A DNA stretch of 16,629 bases, from the NCBI GenBank assembly GCA_946479705.1, contig CAMLHI010000020.1, positions 1 to 16,629 of the forward strand. The letters run 5' to 3'. Below, in pieces: positions 160 through 14,685 of the stretch; within the stretch, counting starts at the first letter, position 1; every line of letters starts with the position of its first letter. The notes below the pieces were generated by a model. It had not been told where the DNA came from, searched no databases, and worked only from the letters and a program-made list of their open reading frames with translations. The DNA comes from an uncultured Oxalobacteraceae bacterium (GTDB taxonomy: Bacteria; Pseudomonadota; Gammaproteobacteria; Burkholderiales; Burkholderiaceae). Made by a program: the position numbers and the translations under genes.

Positions 160-735
160 CTAAGCCGACGTAACTCGAATCCCGTACTGCCGCTGAAAAT
201 GCGGCCAATACAAATGCCGGTCCAGCACGATATCGGCCACCAGACCCAGCTTTGAAGCGCAACGGTCAAACAGTGCCAGGCACAGTCCCGGATAGTTATT
301 GCGCGACGGGTAGAGGATGCCGTCGATCTCCGCCTGCGCGTAGGCCTGGTTGCCGACGCGCTGGGTATGTCGGTAGTCGCGGCTGGTGAGCTGGTTCAGG
401 TTCAGGCCCAGCTGAGCGGCCATGACGCCGGGCGCGTTCAAATCCAGCACGGTGAGCGGGTCGAACACGGCGAGATCTCGCACCAGGCGCTCTCTGAGCT
501 CGTGCTGCGTCATCAGGTGCGGCGCGCGGTACCAGCGGTGGCTGTGAAAGGCCGATTCCATCAGCGCGGTCGGCAGATCAAAAGCGGCGTACAGTACGCC
601 GTACTGGCCGGCCGGGTCATCGTACCGGTTACCGGCGCAGCCGAAATAGAGTTCGCTGCCGGCATATGCAATGCGGCTAACGTGGAGTAGCGAGGTACCT
701 TGGGCGATGGTGGTGGTCGGCAGGAGTACGGTCAA
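160..735 (-). CDS. RES-domain toxin of a RES/Xre-type toxin-antitoxin pair
   Basis: This 191-residue protein is a RES-domain toxin. Characterised family members degrade or modify NAD+ (NAD+ phosphorylase or ADP-ribosyltransferase-like activity) and stop growth when the antitoxin is lost. The residues that name and define the fold are visible: Arg21 (SRIAYAG), the segment RYDDPAGQYGVLYAAFD at about 37-53 with Tyr49, Glu60 (ALMESAF) and Ser144 in ILYPSR. The length is about normal, so the active site looks complete. The start is a TTG whose first bases overlap the antitoxin TGA stop (TTGA, 4-bp overlap). No in-frame ATG occurs before residue 59, which would lie beyond the active-site Arg and Tyr. 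A weak TTG start after an overlapping antitoxin fits antitoxin-first, toxin-limited translation. The family assignment is firm; the exact reaction is inferred from relatives. Confidence 0.9.
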   Translation of the reverse strand: MTVLLPTTTIAQGTSLLHVSRIAYAGSELYFGCAGNRYDDPAGQYGVLYAAFDLPTALMESAFHSHRWYRAPHLMTQHELRERLVRDLAVFDPLTVLDLNAPGVMAAQLGLNLNQLTSRDYRHTQRVGNQAYAQAEIDGILYPSRNNYPGLCLALFDRCASKLGLVADIVLDRHLYWPHFQRQYGIRVTSA

Positions 736-1352
736 GGATGGATTCCGAGTGCGTCGAGCACGGACGCGGTCAAGCGCTCCACGCTGGCCGGGGTGACGGC
801 CTCGACCGCAGCCTTGCCGCCGAAGCGCTCGCTGCCCATGCCGAGCGCGTCGTACAGGGTCCAGGCATCGAGCCCGGGCGCGCCCGCCAGCACGGCCTGC
901 GTCAGCGCCAGCGGCGCGGGAGCCAGCTGCCAGTCGGGAATGTGAATGCCGCGCCCGCCAACGCTGAGCGCGAGCAGCTTGCCTGCCTTGATGAGTTTAT
1001 AGATCTGCTGGCGCGACTTGGCCGCCAGCGCGGCATAGCGCGTCAGCGGCAGATTGCCGGGCCGGTTGAATTCGGCCAGCTGGGCGATACGGCCCTGCTG
1101 CGCTTCGGTGGCGCTGGGATGCCAGGGCTCGACCGGCTGTGCCTCGGGCCGCGCGCGCAGGCGCGCCAGCAGGTCGGCGCGTTCCTCCGGCGTGGCCAGG
1201 CGCGCCGTTTCGGCCCCGACCTTCGAGGCCACCAGTTCGTCGAGCAGTTGGCGAAAGCGACGCTCGTCGCGGATCACCACGGCCTGACGAAAACGGTCAA
1301 GCTCGTCCGCCGAAATGGGCGGCGTGGGGAGACAAGCTAAAGCGGCATGCAT
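732..1352 (-). CDS. Antitoxin partner of the RES toxin (Xre/MbcA/ParS-like C-terminus)
   Basis: The 206-residue protein precedes the RES gene and overlaps it by 4 bp, the usual antitoxin-first order. Its last 55 residues (about 150-206), with GLDAWTLYDALG, a glycine turn and ending VLDALGIHP, resemble the toxin-binding DUF2384 region of MbcA/ParS/Xre antitoxins. The middle (about 103-142, RYAALAAKSRQQIYKLIKAG followed by a basic strand) looks like a helix-turn-helix with a wing, closer to MerR/excisionase-type than to the classical Xre fold. The N-terminal 100 residues are Arg/Glu-rich and probably helical. An excellent ribosome-binding site AGGAGGT (1358-1364) sits 5 bases before the ATG. 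It probably neutralises the toxin by direct binding and represses its own promoter, which carries a direct repeat. The role is inferred mainly from context plus the C-terminus. Confidence 0.78.
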   Translation of the reverse strand: MHAALACLPTPPISADELDRFRQAVVIRDERRFRQLLDELVASKVGAETARLATPEERADLLARLRARPEAQPVEPWHPSATEAQQGRIAQLAEFNRPGNLPLTRYAALAAKSRQQIYKLIKAGKLLALSVGGRGIHIPDWQLAPAPLALTQAVLAGAPGLDAWTLYDALGMGSERFGGKAAVEAVTPASVERLTASVLDALGIHP

Positions 1353-3433: not shown

Positions 3434-5437
<2,004 letters not shown>

Positions 5438-5490
5438 TGACCATCCGCCGTCCGCGCCCCGCGCGCGGACAGCGGCAGAGATAAGCACCC

Positions 5491-7806
<2,316 letters not shown>

Positions 7807-7811
7807 CTCAA

Positions 7812-7828
7812 GGGCACCTCGAATAACC
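7812..7828 (+). repeat. Left terminal inverted repeat of the IS5-like element
   Basis: GGGCACCTCGAATAACC matches the inverted right end GCGGACCTCGAAAAACC at 14 of 17 positions. The core ACCTCGAA is identical. It begins 5 bases after the parC stop. Confidence 0.6.
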
Positions 7829-7981
7829 GTGATTTCGCCGGCGTAAGCGATTCGATCACTTGAAACGTGCCTGAACCAGGATGGTGTGAGCCGTCCTTTT
7901 TATGGACAGAGCTGGTGGCAGTGTTGGCACGCCAGACGGACCGCAGCGTCAAAACGCCTCGACCTTCGCGGCCCTGTTGGC

Positions 7982-7985
7982 CTAG
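7982..7985. repeat. CTAG target duplication, left copy
   Basis: CTAG abuts the left inverted repeat of the IS1182-family element. An identical CTAG follows the right repeat at 9524-9527, consistent with a 4-bp target duplication. CTAG is a palindrome, so direct and inverted repetition cannot be told apart. Confidence 0.6.
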
Positions 7986-8001
7986 GAGTGTGCGCGGCAG
8001 A
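7986..8001 (+). repeat. Left inverted repeat of the IS1182 element
   Basis: GAGTGTGCGCGGCAGA pairs with the reverse complement of 9508-9523 at 14 of 16 positions. Confidence 0.75.
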
Positions 8002-8007
8002 GCCTCT

Positions 8008-8047
8008 GTCATCCGATTTCAAGGTGTAAACGTTGAGGTCGGATGAC
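8008..8047 (+). promoter_or_regulatory. Hairpin sequestering the transposase start codon
   Basis: GTCATCCGA (8008-8016) and TCGGATGAC (8039-8047) are perfectly complementary over 9 bp with a 22-base loop. The right arm contains the ATG of the transposase (8043-8045), and the Shine-Dalgarno-like GAGG (8035-8038) lies directly beside the stem. Only transcripts starting upstream of 8008, such as readthrough from parC, would contain both arms. This resembles the protection against external transcription known from IS10 and IS50. Confidence 0.6.
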
Positions 8048-9368
8048 GACGAGCTACCTTCCTTATGATCCGCAGCAACAAATGCTGCTTCCTCACGCGT
8101 TGCAAGACTGGCTGCCTGAAGGCCACCTTGCCTACTACATCAGCGACACGGTCGACACCTTGGATCTGAGTGCCTTCCATGCCCGTTACGCAGGCGGCGG
8201 GCCGCGCAACCAGCCCTTCCATCCGGCGATGATGCTCAAAGTGCTGATTTACGGGTATGCGACCGGCGTGTTCTCGTCGCGCAAGCTCGCGCGCAAGCTC
8301 CATGAGGACGTGGCGTTCCGTGTGCTCGCGGCCGGCAACTATCCGGCCCATCGGACGATTTGCGATTTCCGAGCCTTCCATTTGAAGGAACTGTCCGAGC
8401 TGTTTGTCCAGGTGGTCAAGCTGGCCCGCGAGTGCGGCTTGGTCAAGCTGGGCACGATTGCGGTCGATGGCACCAAGATCAAGGCCAACGCTTCGCGCCA
8501 CAAGGCGATGAGCTACGAGCGCATGAAGAAGGCCGAGCTGGAGTTGAAGGCGCAGATCGATGCCCTGCTGGCCAAGGCCAAGGCCGCCGACCAGGCCGAG
8601 AAGAACGAACCGGAACTGGACATTCCCGCCGAAATCGAGCGCCGCAGCGAGCGTCTGGCGGCGATTGAAGCGGCCAAAGCGCGACTGGAGGAGCGTCAGC
8701 GCCAAGCCGACATTGAGCGCGGCCCCTCGGACGACGAGGACGGGCAAGGCGGCGGCACCGGCGAGGGCAAGAAGAAGTCACGCTACAAGTACAAATTCGG
8801 CGAGCCCAAGCCCAAGGCGCAGGACAATTTCACCGACCCCGAAAGCCGCATCATGAAGCGTGCCGGCGGCGGCTTCGACTATTGCTACAACGCGCAGACG
8901 GCGGTGGACGACACGGCGCATATCATCGTCGCCGCCGAGCTGACCAACAGCGGCGCCGACAGCCGCCAATTGCCGGCTGTGCTGGCGGCGGTCAAGGCCA
9001 ATACGGGCGACGATCCGCACCAGGTCGTCGCCGACGCGGGCTATCGCTCAGAGGCAGTGTTTGAAGCGCTCAGCGGCCATCCTGCCGACATCATCGTTGC
9101 CCTCGGACGCGAAGGCAAACAAGAGATTGGCGTTGACCCGGCCAAGCGGCCGCTCACAGCAGCGATGGCCGAACGATTCAAATCGCCCACCACCCAGGAC
9201 GCCTATCGGCGGCGCAAATGGCTATCCGAGCCGCCCAACGGTTGGATCAAGCACGTATTGGGCTTCCGACAATTCAGCATGCGCGGCATCGCCAAGGCAC
9301 AGGCAGAGTGGAAACTCGTCTGTGCCGCGCTCAATCTGAAAAGAATGGCGAACATGATGGCCGCGTAG
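8043..9368 (+). CDS. IS1182-family transposase
   Basis: The 441-residue DDE transposase shows the IS1182-type N-terminus (YDPQQQMLLPHALQDWLPEGH), followed by the DUF772-like helical region HPAMMLKVLIYGYATGVFSSR (60-80) and the sentence-like motif PAHRTICDFRAFH. Candidate catalytic residues are Asp142 (AVDGTKIKANAS), Asp331 (VVADAGYRSE) and Glu396 (SEPPNGWIKHVLGFRQF). The insert between the first and second Asp is rich in Lys, Glu and Ala (about 150-270) and probably a coiled coil, as usual in this family. The reading frame is intact and the flanking inverted repeats are present, so the enzyme may be active. Translation from the ATG at 8043 may be limited by an upstream hairpin. The gene reads in the same direction as parC. 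Confidence 0.93.
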   Translation: MTTSYLPYDPQQQMLLPHALQDWLPEGHLAYYISDTVDTLDLSAFHARYAGGGPRNQPFHPAMMLKVLIYGYATGVFSSRKLARKLHEDVAFRVLAAGNYPAHRTICDFRAFHLKELSELFVQVVKLARECGLVKLGTIAVDGTKIKANASRHKAMSYERMKKAELELKAQIDALLAKAKAADQAEKNEPELDIPAEIERRSERLAAIEAAKARLEERQRQADIERGPSDDEDGQGGGTGEGKKKSRYKYKFGEPKPKAQDNFTDPESRIMKRAGGGFDYCYNAQTAVDDTAHIIVAAELTNSGADSRQLPAVLAAVKANTGDDPHQVVADAGYRSEAVFEALSGHPADIIVALGREGKQEIGVDPAKRPLTAAMAERFKSPTTQDAYRRRKWLSEPPNGWIKHVLGFRQFSMRGIAKAQAEWKLVCAALNLKRMANMMAA

Positions 9369-9376
9369 CCCGAAAA

Positions 9377-9415
9377 GGCGAGGAAACTCGCCCCATCAGC
9401 GCTCAGAAAAGCGCT
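9377..9415 (+). terminator. Two tandem hairpins after the transposase stop
   Basis: GGCGAG-GAAA-CTCGCC (9377-9392) is a perfect 6-bp stem with a GNRA tetraloop, 8 bases after the stop codon. AGCGCT-CAGAAA-AGCGCT (9398-9415) follows. There is no T-run, so intrinsic termination is unproven; the hairpins may instead stabilise the mRNA 3' end. Confidence 0.35.
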
Positions 9416-9507
9416 TCAGCATGAGTTTGAACCCGGCTTAGATAAACAACACTGACCGGGCATCGACTCGCCGCACCGTCAACTCATTTATCCTCGCCTA
9501 AATTTCG

Positions 9508-9523
9508 TCTGGCGCGCAGACTC
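9508..9523 (-). repeat. Right inverted repeat of the IS1182 element
   Basis: The reverse complement is GAGTCTGCGCGCCAGA, matching the left end at 14 of 16 positions. Confidence 0.75.
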
Positions 9524-9527
9524 CTAG
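9524..9527. repeat. CTAG target duplication, right copy
   Basis: CTAG directly follows the right inverted repeat and equals the left flank at 7982-7985. Confidence 0.6.
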
Positions 9528-9892
9528 TCTTGCTTCGTGCTCGCCATCGACATAACCCTTGTCGGCCAGGATGGTGCGATTCGTGTCGGCGGGATCATGC
9601 ACGTCTGCAAAATGGAGTGTGTCGTGTTCGCTGGCCGTGCTCACCTTAATCTTGCGCACCAGCTTGTAGCGCGTGTCGGCATTGGCCGACACCTTGTAGC
9701 CGAAGTAGGACTTGGCATTCGTCTTGGTCCAGCATGCGTCAAGGTCCTTCTTACGGCGCTTGGCCGGCTTCCAGTCGACTTGCATCGCGTCGTCGGCGAC
9801 GTTGGCCTTCTCTTCCTGGCTCAGCGACTGTTTGGGCGCCAGAACAATGCTGACGTCGATCGTCTGGCAGCCGCGCTATGTAGCCGTGCTAG
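9524..9892 (-). pseudogene. IS5-family transposase, middle fragment
   Basis: Reading down from about 9875, the frame encodes GCQTIDVSIVLAPKQ, then WKPAKRRKKDLDACWTK, KSYFGYKVSANAD, TASEHDTLHF and TILADKGYVDGEHEARL. These are the successive conserved blocks of IS5-family transposases, with the first catalytic Asp in TIDVS and the second in LADKGY. Just upstream, the sequence at about 9876-9889 reads HGYIA in another frame, which is the block expected next, so a small frameshift (probably a 2-base loss) is present. The fragment is cut by the IS1182 insertion at CTAG, and no recognisable catalytic-Glu region follows on the other side (7981-7812). It cannot encode a working enzyme. Confidence 0.85.
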
Positions 9893-9968
9893 GTCGGGAC
9901 AAGGCGGTTTCGGGGTCATCCCGACATGATGTGGCAATTGCCAATAGTTTACAACTGCTATTGTCATG
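9893..9968 (-). other. Palindrome-rich 3' flank of the SIR2 gene
   Basis: This short gap carries several overlapping dyads: GTCGGGA/TCCCGAC (9893-9899 and 9919-9925), TCGGG/CCCGA (9910-9914 and 9920-9924), the perfect 12-bp palindrome TGGCAATTGCCA (9932-9943), CAATAG/CTATTG (9942-9947 and 9958-9963), and CATGA/TCATG (9925-9929 and 9964-9968). It may be the terminator of the SIR2 gene, which ends at 9995 reading leftward, or the terminal structure of the cassette. There is no clear T-run. Confidence 0.4.
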
Positions 9969-9994
9969 TTCATTCGGGCTGAACAGTTACGGAC

Positions 9995-12900
9995 TCAGAT
10001 CCCCCGCCTCCTGGAGTAGTCTCTGAGACGCAGATAGCGGTGATCTTGCGTAAGCTTTGGCATGGCCTGCACGATCTCGCTTAGGCACTGTCCCAACTCT
10101 CCATATGTCCACTGCTGGCCGGCAATCACCGCGTTAAGTAGTAGCAATGCCTCCGCTGGGAATCGCCCGCACAGTTCAGATTTTTGCAATAGACGCACGA
10201 CGTAGTGCGGGTGCTCAAGCGGTAGCAGCCAGTCCTGCACCGCAGCCAATGCCGCGGGAAACTCGCCTCGGGCGGCAATGACCAGCCGCGCCAAGGATTC
10301 GGCGATTCTCGGGGTAGCCAAGTCGCGGGACTTAGGCCAGACTTCCTTCCAGAACGGCCGGACGCGGTTTTTCCAATAGTCCTCACGCTGGTCGGCGGCA
10401 CCGTCAAGCGCTTGAGAAAGCGCCTGTGCGGATACTTCAAGCCCTTCTTGCGGCAGCATTCCGATTGCGGATCGGAAGTCCTCCACTGCATACCCCCCTG
10501 TTGGGCCCAATGCCGCATAGGTTAGGAGCGTAGCGAACTGCTGGCGATGCTCGCCCAGATCAGCATAGTGGTTTGCGCTATCCAAGAACTGCGGCTTAAA
10601 GGCCTCCAACAAGGGCTGGTACAGGCGTGGTGACCACAGGAAGCCTTCCCACACGGCTTTTGCTTCCACCGAATTGCTCCAGCTGAACAGCGGTAACAAG
10701 TAATGTTCGGTCCAAGGGCGATCTACACGAAAAAAAGCGATCAGTCGCGACCCCAGCAGCACCCGCCCATGGCGAAACCTATCCACTTGCACGTTACAGA
10801 AGGCGGTGAAGAAGGGTTCGATGTCGGCTCGAAGAAGATCATTGTCGTTGGGGTGCTGTTTAAACCACAGATTGATTAGGGCTTGCGTGACATGCCCGAT
10901 TGGGTGGTTGATCGCGGAACCGACAGGGTCATAGGTTTCGGCGCCATTTCTGATGATGCGAGAACCCGCCGCTTCAAGCGGCAACGCCATTACACGGCGG
11001 CAAAGGTCAAGCAAAATGTCCTCGTGCCGGTTGCTCGACTTGGATGCGGCTTGTATCCACCATGTGACAGCATGCGCAATCTCGTGAAGTATGGTATCGG
11101 GCATGATCCCCACCAGGGGTGCGGCATACTGACAAGAGCGCAAGACTACGCCTTCTTCGGCCCAGGTCTGCAGTGCATCGCGCCATCTGCCGGCGGGCCA
11201 CACGCCATCCCGTGCCAAGTCGCATAGCGCGGACAAGCTATGAAAGAAGCGGGTGCGACAAACGTCGCTCCATGTATCTTCGTAAAACGGTCGCTGTTCA
11301 GGTATTGGCTTTCTCAGCCATTGAACGATATCACGCCGCTTTCGAGGCGCGATATCTACGTCGCGACTGTCTTCATAGTCCGGATCGCCCGTACCACTCA
11401 TCCAGTGCGAGAACTCATCACGCTCGTTTGCGGCTAACTGCCATTGAGGGTGTGCGTTGGATATGTCTTCCAAGCGGGCCTTTGCGGCCGCCCCCAATGC
11501 GAGGCCTGATTCGTTCAGTTTGGCCAAATGCAGCCAGACGGAGCGAGCAACGAAGCCCTGCCACCGATCCGACTCCAGGTCTTCCGGATACATCTCGCGC
11601 GGTGGGCCTGCAAGGATCGCCACCTCAAGACGTTCCTGTGCGTCCCCCGACAAATGCCGTCCCTGAAGTACGAACAACCTAAAAACCTCCCGTCCTGTAT
11701 TCGTGGACCAAAGCCACCACGTGCCATCGGCCAACAACCAATCCACCCATTGTTTGGGCGGGACGCATTCATCCTGGCTGGCGGAAAACAGGGCCAAGCG
11801 TTTGAAGCAGGGATACGGCAACTCAAACCATGCAGAGGCGATTCGTGTCGCGCGCGTACCATCGCTCGCACGAACGGCTATCCACGCATCACGCAGCAAT
11901 TCGATCAAGCTCACCCAGTCGTGGAAACCCCGGTTTTGCCAGTGTGGCGTAATGGAGGGAAGGTCCCAGTAAGAGCGGTCACTACGGTCGTCGGCCGCAC
12001 CCAACTCCCGCGATAGGTCCAATGCATCGCGCAACAGTTGCTGTAGGTCCTCAAGTAGCAGCGGCAAGGAAGCCCCCCAGCGCTCGTCTTCGATGTCGCG
12101 TAGAGCCGAGTGCACATGATTTGCGGCCAGCACGAGTTCCCAGTCGACTAACTGCCCGATTCGCGTGGGCACGCCAGTGCTCGAGTCGGCGTCGCCCCAA
12201 CGAAACGGCCTCTTCAACGTTACCTGAGGCGCGAGCAGTTCGCGCAACTCCAGGCGTAGTGGAGTTGTAAGTCCCTCTCTCTTAAGACGACCTTTCCAAC
12301 GATACAGGTCTGGATCGTGCCAAGGCGATTTCACCCGGCCGCTCAGCAAAAGGTGCCACAAGGTACGCATTAAGGGCCCAGGAATGGCCTCAGGGGAGTG
12401 CAAGCGAATTTCATCCAGCTCTGAAGTATTTCCGTCACGCTCCAGTGAAGCAAACCGATCTAGTTCGAGTTCGATCAGCCACAGCCATCGGTCATGCAGC
12501 TTTCCACCGCGTTCCGCAATCCAGATGAGCAGCCTCACGTCATTTAAATGGCGCACTAGCCAGCGAGCCAGTTCGAACATCACGTCATCCCACTGGGTGC
12601 CGGTGACGCCTCCAGAGGCCAGCGACATTGGTTGTGCGCGGTCATAGGACGCGGGTCGACGAATCAGGCTGAAGCGCAGTTTGGAATCGGTATCTTCGCG
12701 CGGCGTCACGTCGAAACGTGCCAGATCGCCGCGCCCAAACCTCTCGTCCGCAAAGGACTCCAGCAGCCAGTCCAGTGATGGGGCGGGGTTGAAATCAGCA
12801 AATCGTTTAGCCGGCAGTCCAGACTTGTCCGACAAGGCCCACAGCATCCGGCCAACGAAGTTGTCTGACTGTGTGCTGGCTTGCGGCCGGGCTAGGGCAT

Positions 12901-13822
12901 GTTTGACGACGATCGCCTCTTTGCCCTGTACCCCATCGCGGTAAGTGTCTGCCCAAGCGTGCAGGGTCTTGTGCAACGCTGAGTGGTCGTAACTAGTTGC
13001 GGGTACGCTATAAAGGATGGGTGTGACACCCTTGGCTTCCCATTCGAGGGTTTTCCGGGACTCTTGTCCTGGCTCGCAATCGCCCAGCGCCCAGGCCTGC
13101 GGCGTAACCTCGCCCAGCATTCTGTCGGCTGCCAATGCATCCATCATGTAGCGCAGTACCGGGTCGTTGATACTGTAGCCCACAAAGCAGACCACATAGT
13201 TTCGAAACAGCTCGCTCACAAAGCGTGCCGCCCAGCGTTCGGTGAGGTAGGCTAAGCCAAAATCACCACTTGTCACCACCAGACGATTAAGGGATGTGTC
13301 GTCCAACTTTTCAGGTAACAGTCCGTGCAGATAGACCAGCCCGTTCCAGCGGCTGTTCTTTGGGACCGGCAGCATTGGCGCGGCGTAAGTTTGGAAAGCT
13401 TGGCCCGTGCGTTTCGCCGCCACATGAAATACGCGGTCGAAGTTGGTGGTGACAAGCCGCAACGCGCCCTCGCGGCTTCGCGCCAAGCACAGCAGCGCAG
13501 CCTGCGAATCGGTGGCCCCCTTGCGGCGGAGATTAGGTTTCAGCGCGTGAGCAAGTGCTCGACGGACGGCCAGGCGCTGTCCGGGGAGGCGTCGTTCGAG
13601 CAGGTCAAGTGTGGCGTCGAACTGCCCGCGCTTGAACGCCTCACGCTCAATGTCTGAAAGTGTCGTGCCGTTAAGCCGGTAAATTTCATCCACCAGTCCA
13701 CTAAAGCCTGGCAGGCCGGCGGGATAGGAAATGCCAGCTCCACAGAAAAACACCACGCGGCCTTCCTCGTGTGCCTGCAAGAGTGCATCAGGGATGTCGG
13801 GACCATTGGTGACGAACTGCAC
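9995..13822 (-). CDS. SIR2-domain anti-phage defence protein, Dsr1-like
   Basis: The intact 1275-residue protein carries an N-terminal SIR2 domain (about 1-290): FFCGAGIS with GAGIS at 28-32, TTNFDR at 125-130 (Asn127), VYLHG with His166, and FVGYSINDPVLRYMM (213-227). Asn127 and His166 match in spacing the catalytic Asn/His pair of NAD+-hydrolysing defence sirtuins such as DSR2 (Asn133, His171). The remaining 980 residues, rich in Trp and Leu, look all-helical and have no domain I can name; in such proteins this part senses the phage trigger. Overall it most resembles the Dsr1 group, a single-gene abortive-infection system. The GTG start gives MQFVTNGPDIPD, the usual opening of these proteins; AGG lies 8 bases upstream, and the GTG abuts the TGA of the transposase fragment. 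Its composition is less GC-rich than its neighbours (34/60 against 42/60 in sample rows), pointing to transfer. NADase activity is inferred. Confidence 0.85.
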   Translation of the reverse strand: MQFVTNGPDIPDALLQAHEEGRVVFFCGAGISYPAGLPGFSGLVDEIYRLNGTTLSDIEREAFKRGQFDATLDLLERRLPGQRLAVRRALAHALKPNLRRKGATDSQAALLCLARSREGALRLVTTNFDRVFHVAAKRTGQAFQTYAAPMLPVPKNSRWNGLVYLHGLLPEKLDDTSLNRLVVTSGDFGLAYLTERWAARFVSELFRNYVVCFVGYSINDPVLRYMMDALAADRMLGEVTPQAWALGDCEPGQESRKTLEWEAKGVTPILYSVPATSYDHSALHKTLHAWADTYRDGVQGKEAIVVKHALARPQASTQSDNFVGRMLWALSDKSGLPAKRFADFNPAPSLDWLLESFADERFGRGDLARFDVTPREDTDSKLRFSLIRRPASYDRAQPMSLASGGVTGTQWDDVMFELARWLVRHLNDVRLLIWIAERGGKLHDRWLWLIELELDRFASLERDGNTSELDEIRLHSPEAIPGPLMRTLWHLLLSGRVKSPWHDPDLYRWKGRLKREGLTTPLRLELRELLAPQVTLKRPFRWGDADSSTGVPTRIGQLVDWELVLAANHVHSALRDIEDERWGASLPLLLEDLQQLLRDALDLSRELGAADDRSDRSYWDLPSITPHWQNRGFHDWVSLIELLRDAWIAVRASDGTRATRIASAWFELPYPCFKRLALFSASQDECVPPKQWVDWLLADGTWWLWSTNTGREVFRLFVLQGRHLSGDAQERLEVAILAGPPREMYPEDLESDRWQGFVARSVWLHLAKLNESGLALGAAAKARLEDISNAHPQWQLAANERDEFSHWMSGTGDPDYEDSRDVDIAPRKRRDIVQWLRKPIPEQRPFYEDTWSDVCRTRFFHSLSALCDLARDGVWPAGRWRDALQTWAEEGVVLRSCQYAAPLVGIMPDTILHEIAHAVTWWIQAASKSSNRHEDILLDLCRRVMALPLEAAGSRIIRNGAETYDPVGSAINHPIGHVTQALINLWFKQHPNDNDLLRADIEPFFTAFCNVQVDRFRHGRVLLGSRLIAFFRVDRPWTEHYLLPLFSWSNSVEAKAVWEGFLWSPRLYQPLLEAFKPQFLDSANHYADLGEHRQQFATLLTYAALGPTGGYAVEDFRSAIGMLPQEGLEVSAQALSQALDGAADQREDYWKNRVRPFWKEVWPKSRDLATPRIAESLARLVIAARGEFPAALAAVQDWLLPLEHPHYVVRLLQKSELCGRFPAEALLLLNAVIAGQQWTYGELGQCLSEIVQAMPKLTQDHRYLRLRDYSRRRGI

Positions 13823-14143
13823 TCAATGCCTCGCGTTGTATGATCGCTCCAGCGTCGCGCACGGACCCGTGCAGCCCTGGAAACTCAAGCGGTCCAACGG
13901 CTGGAATTCCACCGGCTCGTCGGAGAGGTTGAACAATTGCTGGATCCGCAAAATGGGCACTATCACTTCGGTCGGAAACGGCGGACGACCTCCGCGTTCT
14001 CGCCCCGGTCGCGGTGCCGCTTGATCGACCGAGGCGGCAAGCGCGGTGAAGTCAATATGCCGCTCCATGATTTGCATCATATCGCCAAGCCTGGACGGCT
14101 TGGCTTCGCGCTCCTGGGCGGCATACGGATTGGGTTTCATCAT
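13823..14143 (-). pseudogene. IS5-family transposase, N-terminal fragment
   Basis: The 106-codon frame matches IS5-family transposases for its first 88 or so residues: ERHIDFTALAASVDQ, GGRPPFPTEVIVPILRI and QQLFNLSDEPVEFQPLDRLS (the DUF772 helical domain). After LSFQ (near 13886) the homology stops and 17 unrelated residues follow to a TGA at 13823-13825. The missing part should hold about 60 further residues before the fragment resumes at about 9890. The TGA is immediately followed by the GTG of the SIR2 gene, so this fragment may act as a leader cistron. No transposase activity is possible without the catalytic residues. Confidence 0.8.
13859..13872 (-). promoter_or_regulatory. GC-rich dyad upstream of the SIR2 start
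   Basis: GCACGG-GT-CCGTGC (minus strand) is a perfect 6-bp dyad with a 2-base centre, 37 bases before the GTG and close to the point where transposase homology ends. It could be an operator for the defence gene or part of the cassette end. No good promoter hexamers accompany it. Confidence 0.3.
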
Positions 14144-14191
14144 GGCTGAGTCATCAAGATAGGTACGCCGACATCATGCCATGGCTGCAGA

Positions 14192-14208
14192 GGTTTTTCG
14201 AGGTCCGC
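14192..14208 (-). repeat. Right terminal inverted repeat of the IS5-like element
   Basis: The reverse complement GCGGACCTCGAAAAACC matches the left end at 14 of 17 positions. It lies 49 bases upstream of the transposase fragment's start and 12 bases from the stop of the following gene. The outermost bases are the diverged ones. Confidence 0.55.
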
Positions 14209-14220
14209 GGCCCGCACAGC

Positions 14221-14685
14221 TTACTTGGCAGCGGCCTTCTTCACGTCGGCCGCGGCTTCGATCTTTTTCTCTTTGGTCTTGGCGGCAGCTTCCGCCTTGT
14301 CGGCCGACGCCTCGACGGCGACTTTCTCGGCTTTCTTGTCGGCCTTGATCATCTTCTTCTCGGCCTTCAGGTTCGCTTCGCCGACCTTCTTCTCGGCCTT
14401 GGCTTCGGCCTTCATCTTGTCTTCCGGGTCGGCCTTGGCCACGTCAGCGCTGGCGTCAGCGTGCTTTTTCACGGCGTCGGCATGGGCCTTGGCCTTCTTG
14501 GCGTCGGCCTTGGCATGCGCCTTGGTGACTTTTTCGTCGGCCTTGGCATCGACCTTGGCTTCCTTCTCTTCCGCCTTGGCGACGGTCTTCTCGGCCTTGA
14601 CTTCCGCCTTGGCTACTTCAGGGGTCTGGGCGTAGACGGAGGTGGCAAACAGACCGGCGATCAGGGTGACGAGTAATTTGTTCAT
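14221..14685 (-). CDS. Secreted Ala/Lys-rich helical protein of unknown function
   Basis: The 154-residue protein starts with a standard signal peptide, MNKLLVTLIAGLFATSVYA, with probable cleavage before Gln20. The rest is almost only Ala, Lys, Glu, Asp and Val in short repeating units such as KAEAKAEKK and KADAKKAKAHA, which should form a long, very basic single helix or coiled coil. The composition recalls the helical domain of TolA and histone H1-like proteins, but no domain boundary or partner-binding motif is visible, so similarity may be compositional only. The true start is the ATG at 14685: the signal peptide begins there and GAGG (14694-14697) precedes it by 8 bases. The frame stays open far upstream only as a shadow of the neighbouring hydrolase. 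An 11-bp inverted repeat borders its ribosome-binding site. Confidence 0.75.
   Translation of the reverse strand: MNKLLVTLIAGLFATSVYAQTPEVAKAEVKAEKTVAKAEEKEAKVDAKADEKVTKAHAKADAKKAKAHADAVKKHADASADVAKADPEDKMKAEAKAEKKVGEANLKAEKKMIKADKKAEKVAVEASADKAEAAAKTKEKKIEAAADVKKAAAK

What the first reader, a model, noticed from the sequence alone, without database searches (positions are those of the whole stretch)
9893..13886. One-gene SIR2 (Dsr1-like) defence cassette lodged inside an IS5-family transposase gene
Seen: IS5-type transposase blocks lie on both sides in the same orientation, with about 60 codons missing, and the only gene between them is an intact 1275-residue SIR2 protein of lower GC. Known: Dsr1/DSR2-type sirtuins are single-gene anti-phage systems. 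Inference: an IS5 element, or recombination between IS5 copies, acquired the defence gene as cargo, replacing the catalytic core. If the same junctions occur elsewhere, this would be an IS-derived defence carrier mobilised in trans by IS5 transposase.
Basis: partly seen in the sequence, partly recalled or inferred. Interest (0 to 1): 0.78.

Follow-up and report, generated by a model that had tools for sequence, protein, structure and literature searches.

The report
Antiphage gene stranded in dead transposon
An ordinary, intact antiphage gene (Dsr1) sits inside the wreck of a jumping gene and still carries the last few codons of a restriction-enzyme gene in front of it, so it looks like a piece broken off a larger defence operon and not the cargo of a new kind of mobile element.

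Summary
An intact 1275-aa Dsr1 (NCBIfam NF041818, 2083.8 bits, cutoff 1400) lies between two halves of one kind of IS5 transposase gene in the same orientation, in a Massilia-like chromosome between parC and a convergent lysine/alanine-rich gene. About 41 codons are missing, not 60. Both IS5 ends survive (7812, 14208). But the IS5 is a fossil: relaxed constraint, a 3' deletion that removes the last catalytic motif, no target duplication. A younger IS1182 is nested in it. New here: the last 12 codons of an hsdS gene stand directly before Dsr1 (0 of 12,457 control stretches score as high). Of 27 other Dsr1 5' ends, 6 abut an hsdS tail, 2 of them with hsdR, hsdM and full hsdS. So Dsr1 most likely broke off an hsdRMS-dsr1 operon and came to rest in a dead IS5. 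Neither junction was found in plasmid records, and none of 21 other Dsr1 loci lies in this IS5. Mobilisation in trans is unsupported; the window's own genome is not held.

The parts
5491..7806 (+). parC, left chromosomal neighbour; its stop lies 5 bp from the IS5 end
   Evidence: ORF; 80-83% protein identity to Massilia, Telluria and Janthinobacterium ParC in the closest named loci
7812..7981 (-). 3' end of the IS5 element: last codons, non-coding tail and perfect terminal inverted repeat (7812-7827)
   Evidence: blastn 85.1% over 47 bp (L087) and 92.5% over 40 bp (L086); interior part beats all 300 shuffles for 5 of 6 copies, 3 of 300 shuffles reach it for L097; repeat pattern
7982..7985 (.). 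CTAG, left copy of the IS1182 target duplication
7986..9523 (+). IS1182-family element nested in the IS5; transposase frame 8043-9368 (441 aa) intact
   Evidence: NCBIfam NF033551 383.3 bits, cutoff 270; ends shared with L144, L147, L148
9524..9527 (.). CTAG, right copy of the IS1182 target duplication
9528..9889 (-). C-terminal part of the IS5 transposase gene (keeps the first two D motifs)
   Evidence: blastn 83% to L087; PF01609; NF033581 51.4 bits, below the 140-bit cutoff as a fragment
9890..9994 (-). 105 bp between the Dsr1 stop and IS5; no convincing relative found
   Evidence: not above shuffles; only 14-15 nt chance hits
9995..13822 (-). Dsr1, SIR2-domain antiphage protein, 1275 aa, GTG start
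   Evidence: NF041818 2083.8 bits; PADLOC Dsr1 2433.5 bits; PF13289
13823..13858 (-). Last 12 codons of hsdS (ATLERSYNARH + stop), TGA directly before the Dsr1 GTG; holds the likely ribosome-binding site GAGG
13823..14143 (-). Open frame of 106 codons: IS5 N-terminal part fused in frame to the hsdS tail
13873..14144 (-). N-terminal part of the IS5 transposase gene (junction with the hsdS tail lies in 13858-13873)
   Evidence: blastn 76% to L086/L088; PF05598
14192..14208 (-). Left terminal inverted repeat of IS5, variant GCGGACCTCGAAAAACC (same variant in L098)
14221..14685 (-). Lysine/alanine-rich gene, right chromosomal neighbour (convergent with parC in relatives)
   Evidence: no Pfam family

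Best explanation
Dsr1 here is a normal, probably working defence gene that was broken off a type I restriction operon (hsdR-hsdM-hsdS-dsr1) and ended up inside a dead IS5 copy between parC and a convergent neighbour. The break left the last 12 codons of hsdS, which contain the likely ribosome-binding site, attached to Dsr1. The stump of the IS5 transposase frame now runs in frame into these 12 codons and stops exactly at the Dsr1 start (TGAGTG), so Dsr1 is probably translated by coupling to this hybrid frame and transcribed from the IS5 end or further upstream (inferred). The protein itself would act as other Dsr1: a phage signal sensed by the large C-terminal part switches on the N-terminal SIR2 NADase, which consumes NAD+ (inferred from the family). 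The IS5 is a landing place, not the vehicle; an IS1182 jumped into it later. Shown: parts, ends, decay, hsdS tail, nested IS1182. Inferred: order of events, coupling, activity.
For: Dsr1 equivalog over full length, SIR2 motif residues invariant among 14 aligned Dsr1. hsdS tail: the window's 11-residue tail scores 18.75 against four reference tails, 0 of 12,457 control stretches reach it, maximum 16.5; the same with three tails or with L210 added, 0 of 12,429. The 38 nt upstream align, with gaps, to the hsdS end before Dsr1 in L114 better than all 1000 shuffles. hsdR, hsdM and full hsdS precede Dsr1 in L154 (= L114) and L197 (= L178); truncated hsdS tails precede Dsr1 in L174, L177, L181 and L210, so a leftover tail after loss of the restriction genes has arisen elsewhere too. 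IS5 decay: N part 68-70% aa identity with third-position share 0.42-0.54, against 89-97% and 0.61-0.74 between intact copies in the compared divergence range; C part 69-78% and 0.50-0.63 against 75-91% and 0.61-0.79. IS1182 with CTAG duplication inside IS5. Empty site: parC, then 81 to 365 bp, then the K/A-rich gene in L002, L003, L005, L007, L013, L047.
Against: The hsdS remnant is only 36 nt, and the ungapped nucleotide match to L114 is only 14 of 38. The window's own genome and close strains are not held, so the source operon and intermediate states are unseen. Twenty of 27 other Dsr1 5' ends have no hsdS tail and one (L182) is borderline, so the operon is one of several contexts. No sigma-70-like promoter was found near Dsr1. 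The IS5 C part also lacks stops over the piece compared, so the open frame of the N part is not evidence of selection.
Confidence: 0.72

Rival explanations
1. IS-derived defence carrier: an IS5 acquired Dsr1 as cargo and the 6.4 kb unit is moved in trans by IS5 transposase acting on the two surviving ends.
For: Both terminal repeats are present, one perfect and one with two changes that also occur in L098; IS1182 and Dsr1 lie wholly between them.
Against: No matching target duplication; fossil-like IS5; no shared junction in the plasmid collection; 0 of 21 other Dsr1 loci lie in this IS5. IS5-family genes near other Dsr1: a distant one (28%) about 2.6 kb away in L156 and an annotated IS903B about 5 kb away in E. 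coli L173, neither bracketing the gene. No functional helper is known, since the genome is not held.
Confidence: 0.05
2. Two IS5 copies flanked a larger hsd-dsr1 segment (composite-transposon-like); later deletions removed the restriction genes and the inner halves of both copies, leaving two complementary stumps.
For: The N part diverges more than the C part (end branches 0.39 and 0.16) and holding it in the L086 clade that the C part joins is disfavoured but not rejected (AU p 0.08); no target duplication; hsdS tail fused straight to IS5.
Against: The stumps are almost exactly complementary (41 codons missing, no overlap), which one interrupted copy explains more simply; in most comparisons with L086 the N region is the more variable one among intact copies too.
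Confidence: 0.22
3. The hsdS resemblance is chance and Dsr1 was inserted into IS5 as a lone gene by ordinary illegitimate recombination.
For: Only 12 codons are involved; most other Dsr1 loci lack an hsdS tail.
Against: 0 of 12,457 control stretches and 0 of 2,448 ends of open frames score as high; same position, frame and zero spacing as in L174, L177, L181 and L210.
Confidence: 0.06

Closest known systems
Dsr1 (defence-associated sirtuin 1; NCBIfam NF041818, PADLOC Dsr1)
   Same: Full-length equivalog match far above cutoff; single gene; N-terminal SIR2 domain, long C-terminal part; the 119 other proteins listed are 79-93% identical (4322 passed the E-value limit, best 120 listed).
   Different: Nothing in the protein. 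Context: inside a dead IS5, with an hsdS tail in front.
IS5 family, IS5_4-type transposase (NF033581), here a subgroup with ends GGGCACCTCGAAAAAC...GTTATTCGAGGTGCCC
   Same: Both ends, both halves of the gene, same orientation.
   Different: Broken by Dsr1 and by IS1182, third catalytic motif deleted, no target duplication seen.
IS1182 family (NF033551)
   Same: Intact 441-aa transposase, paired ends, 4-bp CTAG duplication.
   Different: Ordinary copy; only a later passenger.
hsdRMS-dsr1 operons (L154, L197)
   Same: Dsr1 starts at or overlapping the end of hsdS.
   Different: In the window only 12 codons of hsdS are left, compare the truncated tails of L174, L177, L181 and L210.
Transporter IS / IS with passenger genes (recalled; paper listings only)
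   Same: IS ends bracket a gene unrelated to transposition.
   Different: No evidence of mobility, recurrence or target duplication.

Membership tests
Dsr1 | Score above the curated NF041818 cutoff over full length | tested here: met
   2083.8 bits against 1400, residues 1-1271 on profile 1-1263
Dsr1 | SIR2 domain with GAG, TTNFD and H-G motifs | tested here: met
   PF13289 1.1e-21; G28 A29 G30, T125 T126 N127 F128 D129, H166 G167 invariant in 14 aligned rows. Catalytic roles by analogy with DSR2 N133/H171 (PMC10973363, passages); DSR2 was not aligned.
Dsr1 | NADase activity and phage defence | not testable with these tools
   -
IS5 element, complete and mobile | Terminal inverted repeats at both ends | tested here: met
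   7812-7827 perfect, 14192-14208 with two changes
IS5 element, complete and mobile | Uninterrupted transposase with all three DDE motifs | tested here: not met
   Split by Dsr1 and IS1182; third motif deleted
IS5 element, complete and mobile | Target duplication | tested here: not met
   TTGA on one side, GGCC on the other; the flanking region between parC and its neighbour is mostly lost, so weak evidence
IS-derived defence carrier | Same unit at more than one site | tested here: inconclusive
   Not found; but the own genome and close strains are not held
IS1182 | Family transposase, paired ends, target duplication | tested here: met
hsdRMS-dsr1 operon | hsdS ending at the Dsr1 start | tested here: met
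   12-codon tail only
hsdRMS-dsr1 operon | Intact hsdR, hsdM, hsdS | tested here: not met
   No such frames in the window

The most novel reading that the evidence does not exclude
Dsr1 began as a built-in guard of type I restriction operons, its start fused to the end of hsdS. It has escaped repeatedly when the restriction genes were lost, each time keeping a short hsdS stub because that stub is its translation start module. In this window the stub has been hooked to an IS5 gene start, giving the orphan a new promoter and a hybrid leader frame.
Probability: 0.25. Interest if true: 0.55.

Novelty: new member of a known kind. Interest (0 to 1): 0.34.

Why it matters
It shows how a defence gene can be stranded outside a recognisable island, and it corrects a tempting reading: IS sequence on both sides does not make a transposon. 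If the hsdS stubs before Dsr1 are kept by selection, they link Dsr1 to type I restriction systems and make a concrete test possible: whether Dsr1 is a guard of restriction that outlives its partner.

Tried and rejected
Rejected: extension of IS5 homology through 13823-13872 or 9890-9994; neither clearly exceeds shuffles. Rejected: 60 missing codons and loss of the catalytic core in the Dsr1 gap. Rejected: open IS5 N frame as sign of selection, because the compared C part is equally free of stops. Not decided: one or two IS5 copies (the N part does not reject the L095/L097 clade, p 0.37, the C part does, p 0.0007). Led nowhere: promoter scan (0 sites, 1.7 expected); relatives of the 105 bp after Dsr1; solved structures (4 weak SIR2 matches, best KomC 9.5e-5); Dsr1 in phage records (no match). 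Papers: listings and passages of PMC10121019, PMC10952713 and PMC10973363; none of what I saw states the hsdS link, but I do not claim that it is unpublished. IS5 copies split by other DNA, judged by eye in the table (17 genomes with this subgroup or a fragment of it): two cases, filled by an IS4-family element, and by an IS630-family element plus a distant IS5 copy; no defence gene seen there. A viral scan for IS1182 gave five relatives, not examined further apart from the end of L203. An early doubt about the L177 tail (leave-one-out score 11.3, no tblastn hit) was resolved by a 23-residue comparison (37 against a control maximum of 20, 0 of 8,317); L182 stays borderline (3 of 12,429 controls as good).

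Full report
What is in the sequence. The window is a chromosomal segment of a Massilia-like member of the Oxalobacteraceae: its ParC is 83% identical to that of Massilia horti and Telluria aromaticivorans. No genome is held for the window itself. In six relatives parC is followed by a convergent lysine/alanine-rich gene after 81-365 bp (L002, L003, L005, L007, L013, L047), with terminator-like hairpins in between (read by eye). In the window 6.4 kb lie there instead, from 7812 to 14208. None of the 80 parC loci holds Dsr1, this IS5 or this IS1182 in the stretch fetched.

The IS5 element. Relatives of the IS5 C part were found in 32 of 294 genomes of the family, 17 of them with a best match of 60-79% identity, two of these partial. 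The intact ones have a frame of about 343 codons and ends GGGCACCTCGAAAAAC...GTTATTCGAGGTGCCC, about 1.23 kb apart, several with short target duplications (read by eye). The window holds three blocks of such an element, all in one orientation: the left end and N part (14208-13873), the C part (9889-9528) and the 3' end with a perfect terminal repeat (7981-7812). Missing are about 124 bp where Dsr1 sits, and about 220 bp near the 3' end, which carry the third catalytic motif (motif role recalled). The flanks show no target duplication (TTGA and GGCC), and most of the spacer seen in the relatives is gone, so a deletion beside the element could explain this.

The element is a fossil. Against nine intact copies the window's N part has 68-70% amino-acid identity and only 42-54% of its differences at third codon positions; pairs of intact copies in the compared divergence range have 89-97% and 61-74%. 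The C part shows the same trend with some overlap, 69-78% and 50-63% against 75-91% and 61-79%. Whether both halves come from one copy is open: the C part groups with L086, L087, L088 and L092 (support 69/31), the N part is unresolved and holding it there gives AU p 0.08.

The nested IS1182. An intact IS1182-family transposase (NF033551, 383.3 bits, cutoff 270) lies in an element at 7986-9523 between two CTAG copies. L144, L147 and L148 share its ends; L144 and L147 also have CTAG beside the end, L148 has TTAG. On either side the IS5 sequence continues. It is thus a clean and younger insertion into the IS5.

Dsr1. The 1275-aa protein matches Dsr1 over its whole length (NF041818 2083.8 bits; PADLOC 2433.5 bits). 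GAG, TTNFD and HG motifs are invariant among 14 Dsr1. Of the 120 proteins listed (4322 passed the limit) the nearest apart from itself are 93% and 87% identical, on contigs of 5.5 and 12.3 kb at most, which I could not open. The mechanism is taken from the family: DSR2 NADase is activated by phage tail tube protein, and DSR1 stops phage without killing the cell according to a review that cites Garb et al. 2022 (passages of PMC10973363 and PMC10952713).

The left edge of the insert is hsdS. In L154 (the longer stretch around L114) Dsr1 directly follows a complete hsdR-hsdM-hsdS operon (Pfam), and its 38 nt before the start align with those of the window, with gaps, better than all 1000 shuffles (32 upstream regions were compared; L174, L177, L178 and L181 gave 3 to 10 of 1000, the best locus without an hsdS tail 13 of 1000). 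The window reads GCG ACG CTG GAG CGA TCA TAC AAC GCG AGG CAT TGA before GTG: ATLERSYNARH and stop. Tails of the same length and frame, with the stop touching the Dsr1 start, stand in L181/L198 (ATLERVFSEAY), L174/L195 (ALLERVFAGSS), L177/L196 (VTLVRLLSGEH) and L210 (ATLKRVFCGAH). Scored against four tails (L195-L198), the window reaches 18.75; none of 12,457 open stretches before a TGA in 32 parC-region loci does (maximum 16.5), nor any of 2,448 ends of open frames. Leaving out the oddest tail, or adding L210, does not change this (0 of 12,429). L210 came from a later search and itself scores 26 against the other three firm tails, control maximum 16.7.

How common it is. I gave 27 Dsr1 5' ends: those loci (392, 399 and 369 genomes) whose match starts at residue 1, except the remnant L127, which with L129 was looked at only and shows no such tail. 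Six of 27 abut an hsdS tail: L114 and L178 with full hsdS, hsdM and hsdR, L181 with about 137 matched residues, L210 with about 44, L174 with about 26, and L177, where only a 23-residue comparison carries it (0 of 8,317 controls). L182 is borderline. The other 20 show none, and none of the plasmid, E. coli and viral loci does. So the hsdS link is one recurrent context, not the rule.

Other Dsr1 loci and the carrier model. DNA similarity to other Dsr1 loci ends within a few bases of the gene borders in the search; the short hsdS tail was seen only on direct inspection. Among 21 other Dsr1 loci or remnants with flanks read as far as fetched (13, 8 new) none has this IS5 or the IS1182; L156 has a distant IS5 transposase (28%) about 2.6 kb away. 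In the annotated records an IS903B (IS5 family) is listed about 5 kb from Dsr1 in L173 and an IS3 element upstream in L166. Plasmid records give no match across either junction, and phage records none to Dsr1. Among 17 genomes with this IS5 subgroup or a fragment of it, I saw two copies split by other DNA, filled by other IS elements. There is thus no sign of a general carrier.

How it most likely works. Shown: an intact Dsr1 whose GTG touches the TGA of a 106-codon frame made of the IS5 N part and the hsdS tail. Inferred: the hsdS tail supplies the ribosome-binding site (GAGG six bases before the start), the hybrid frame couples translation, and transcription comes from the IS5 end or beyond; no sigma-70-like site was found, against 1.7 expected by chance. 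The order of events is inferred: IS5 first, Dsr1 with its hsdS tail next, IS1182 last; the relative order of the last two is not shown.

Verdict. Dsr1 is a known family, IS5 and IS1182 are known families, and the arrangement is best read as wreckage. The hsdS tail is the point worth following.

Noticed in passing
window 160-735 and 732-1352 (minus): A RES-domain protein (PF08808) preceded by a 206-aa gene with 4-bp overlap and no Pfam family: looks like a RES-type toxin-antitoxin pair. RES toxins consume NAD+ (recalled), as Dsr1 does, about 9 kb away.
   Followed up: partly
L157 5200-11551; L162 1848-8777; window 3434-13822: Dsr1 starts 22 bp after a gyrB-like gene in L157, a 58-residue Dsr1 remnant lies about 4.3 kb after a gyrB-like gene in L162 (gyrB by similarity to ParE and recall), and the window's Dsr1 follows parE-parC. 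Topoisomerase genes may mark insertion spots, or this is chance.
   Followed up: no
L197 9883-16447: hsdR, hsdM, a YhcG/DUF1016 nuclease gene, hsdS and Dsr1 in one run: a larger compound defence operon.
   Followed up: partly
L127, L129, L161, L215, L217: Short Dsr1 remnants (5' or internal pieces) in several genomes: Dsr1 is often lost by decay.
   Followed up: no
L171, L172, L173: E. coli Dsr1 sits right after a tyrosine integrase beside yjjG/rimI, with phage genes on the other side: an integrated element in the same spot in these three genomes.
   Followed up: no
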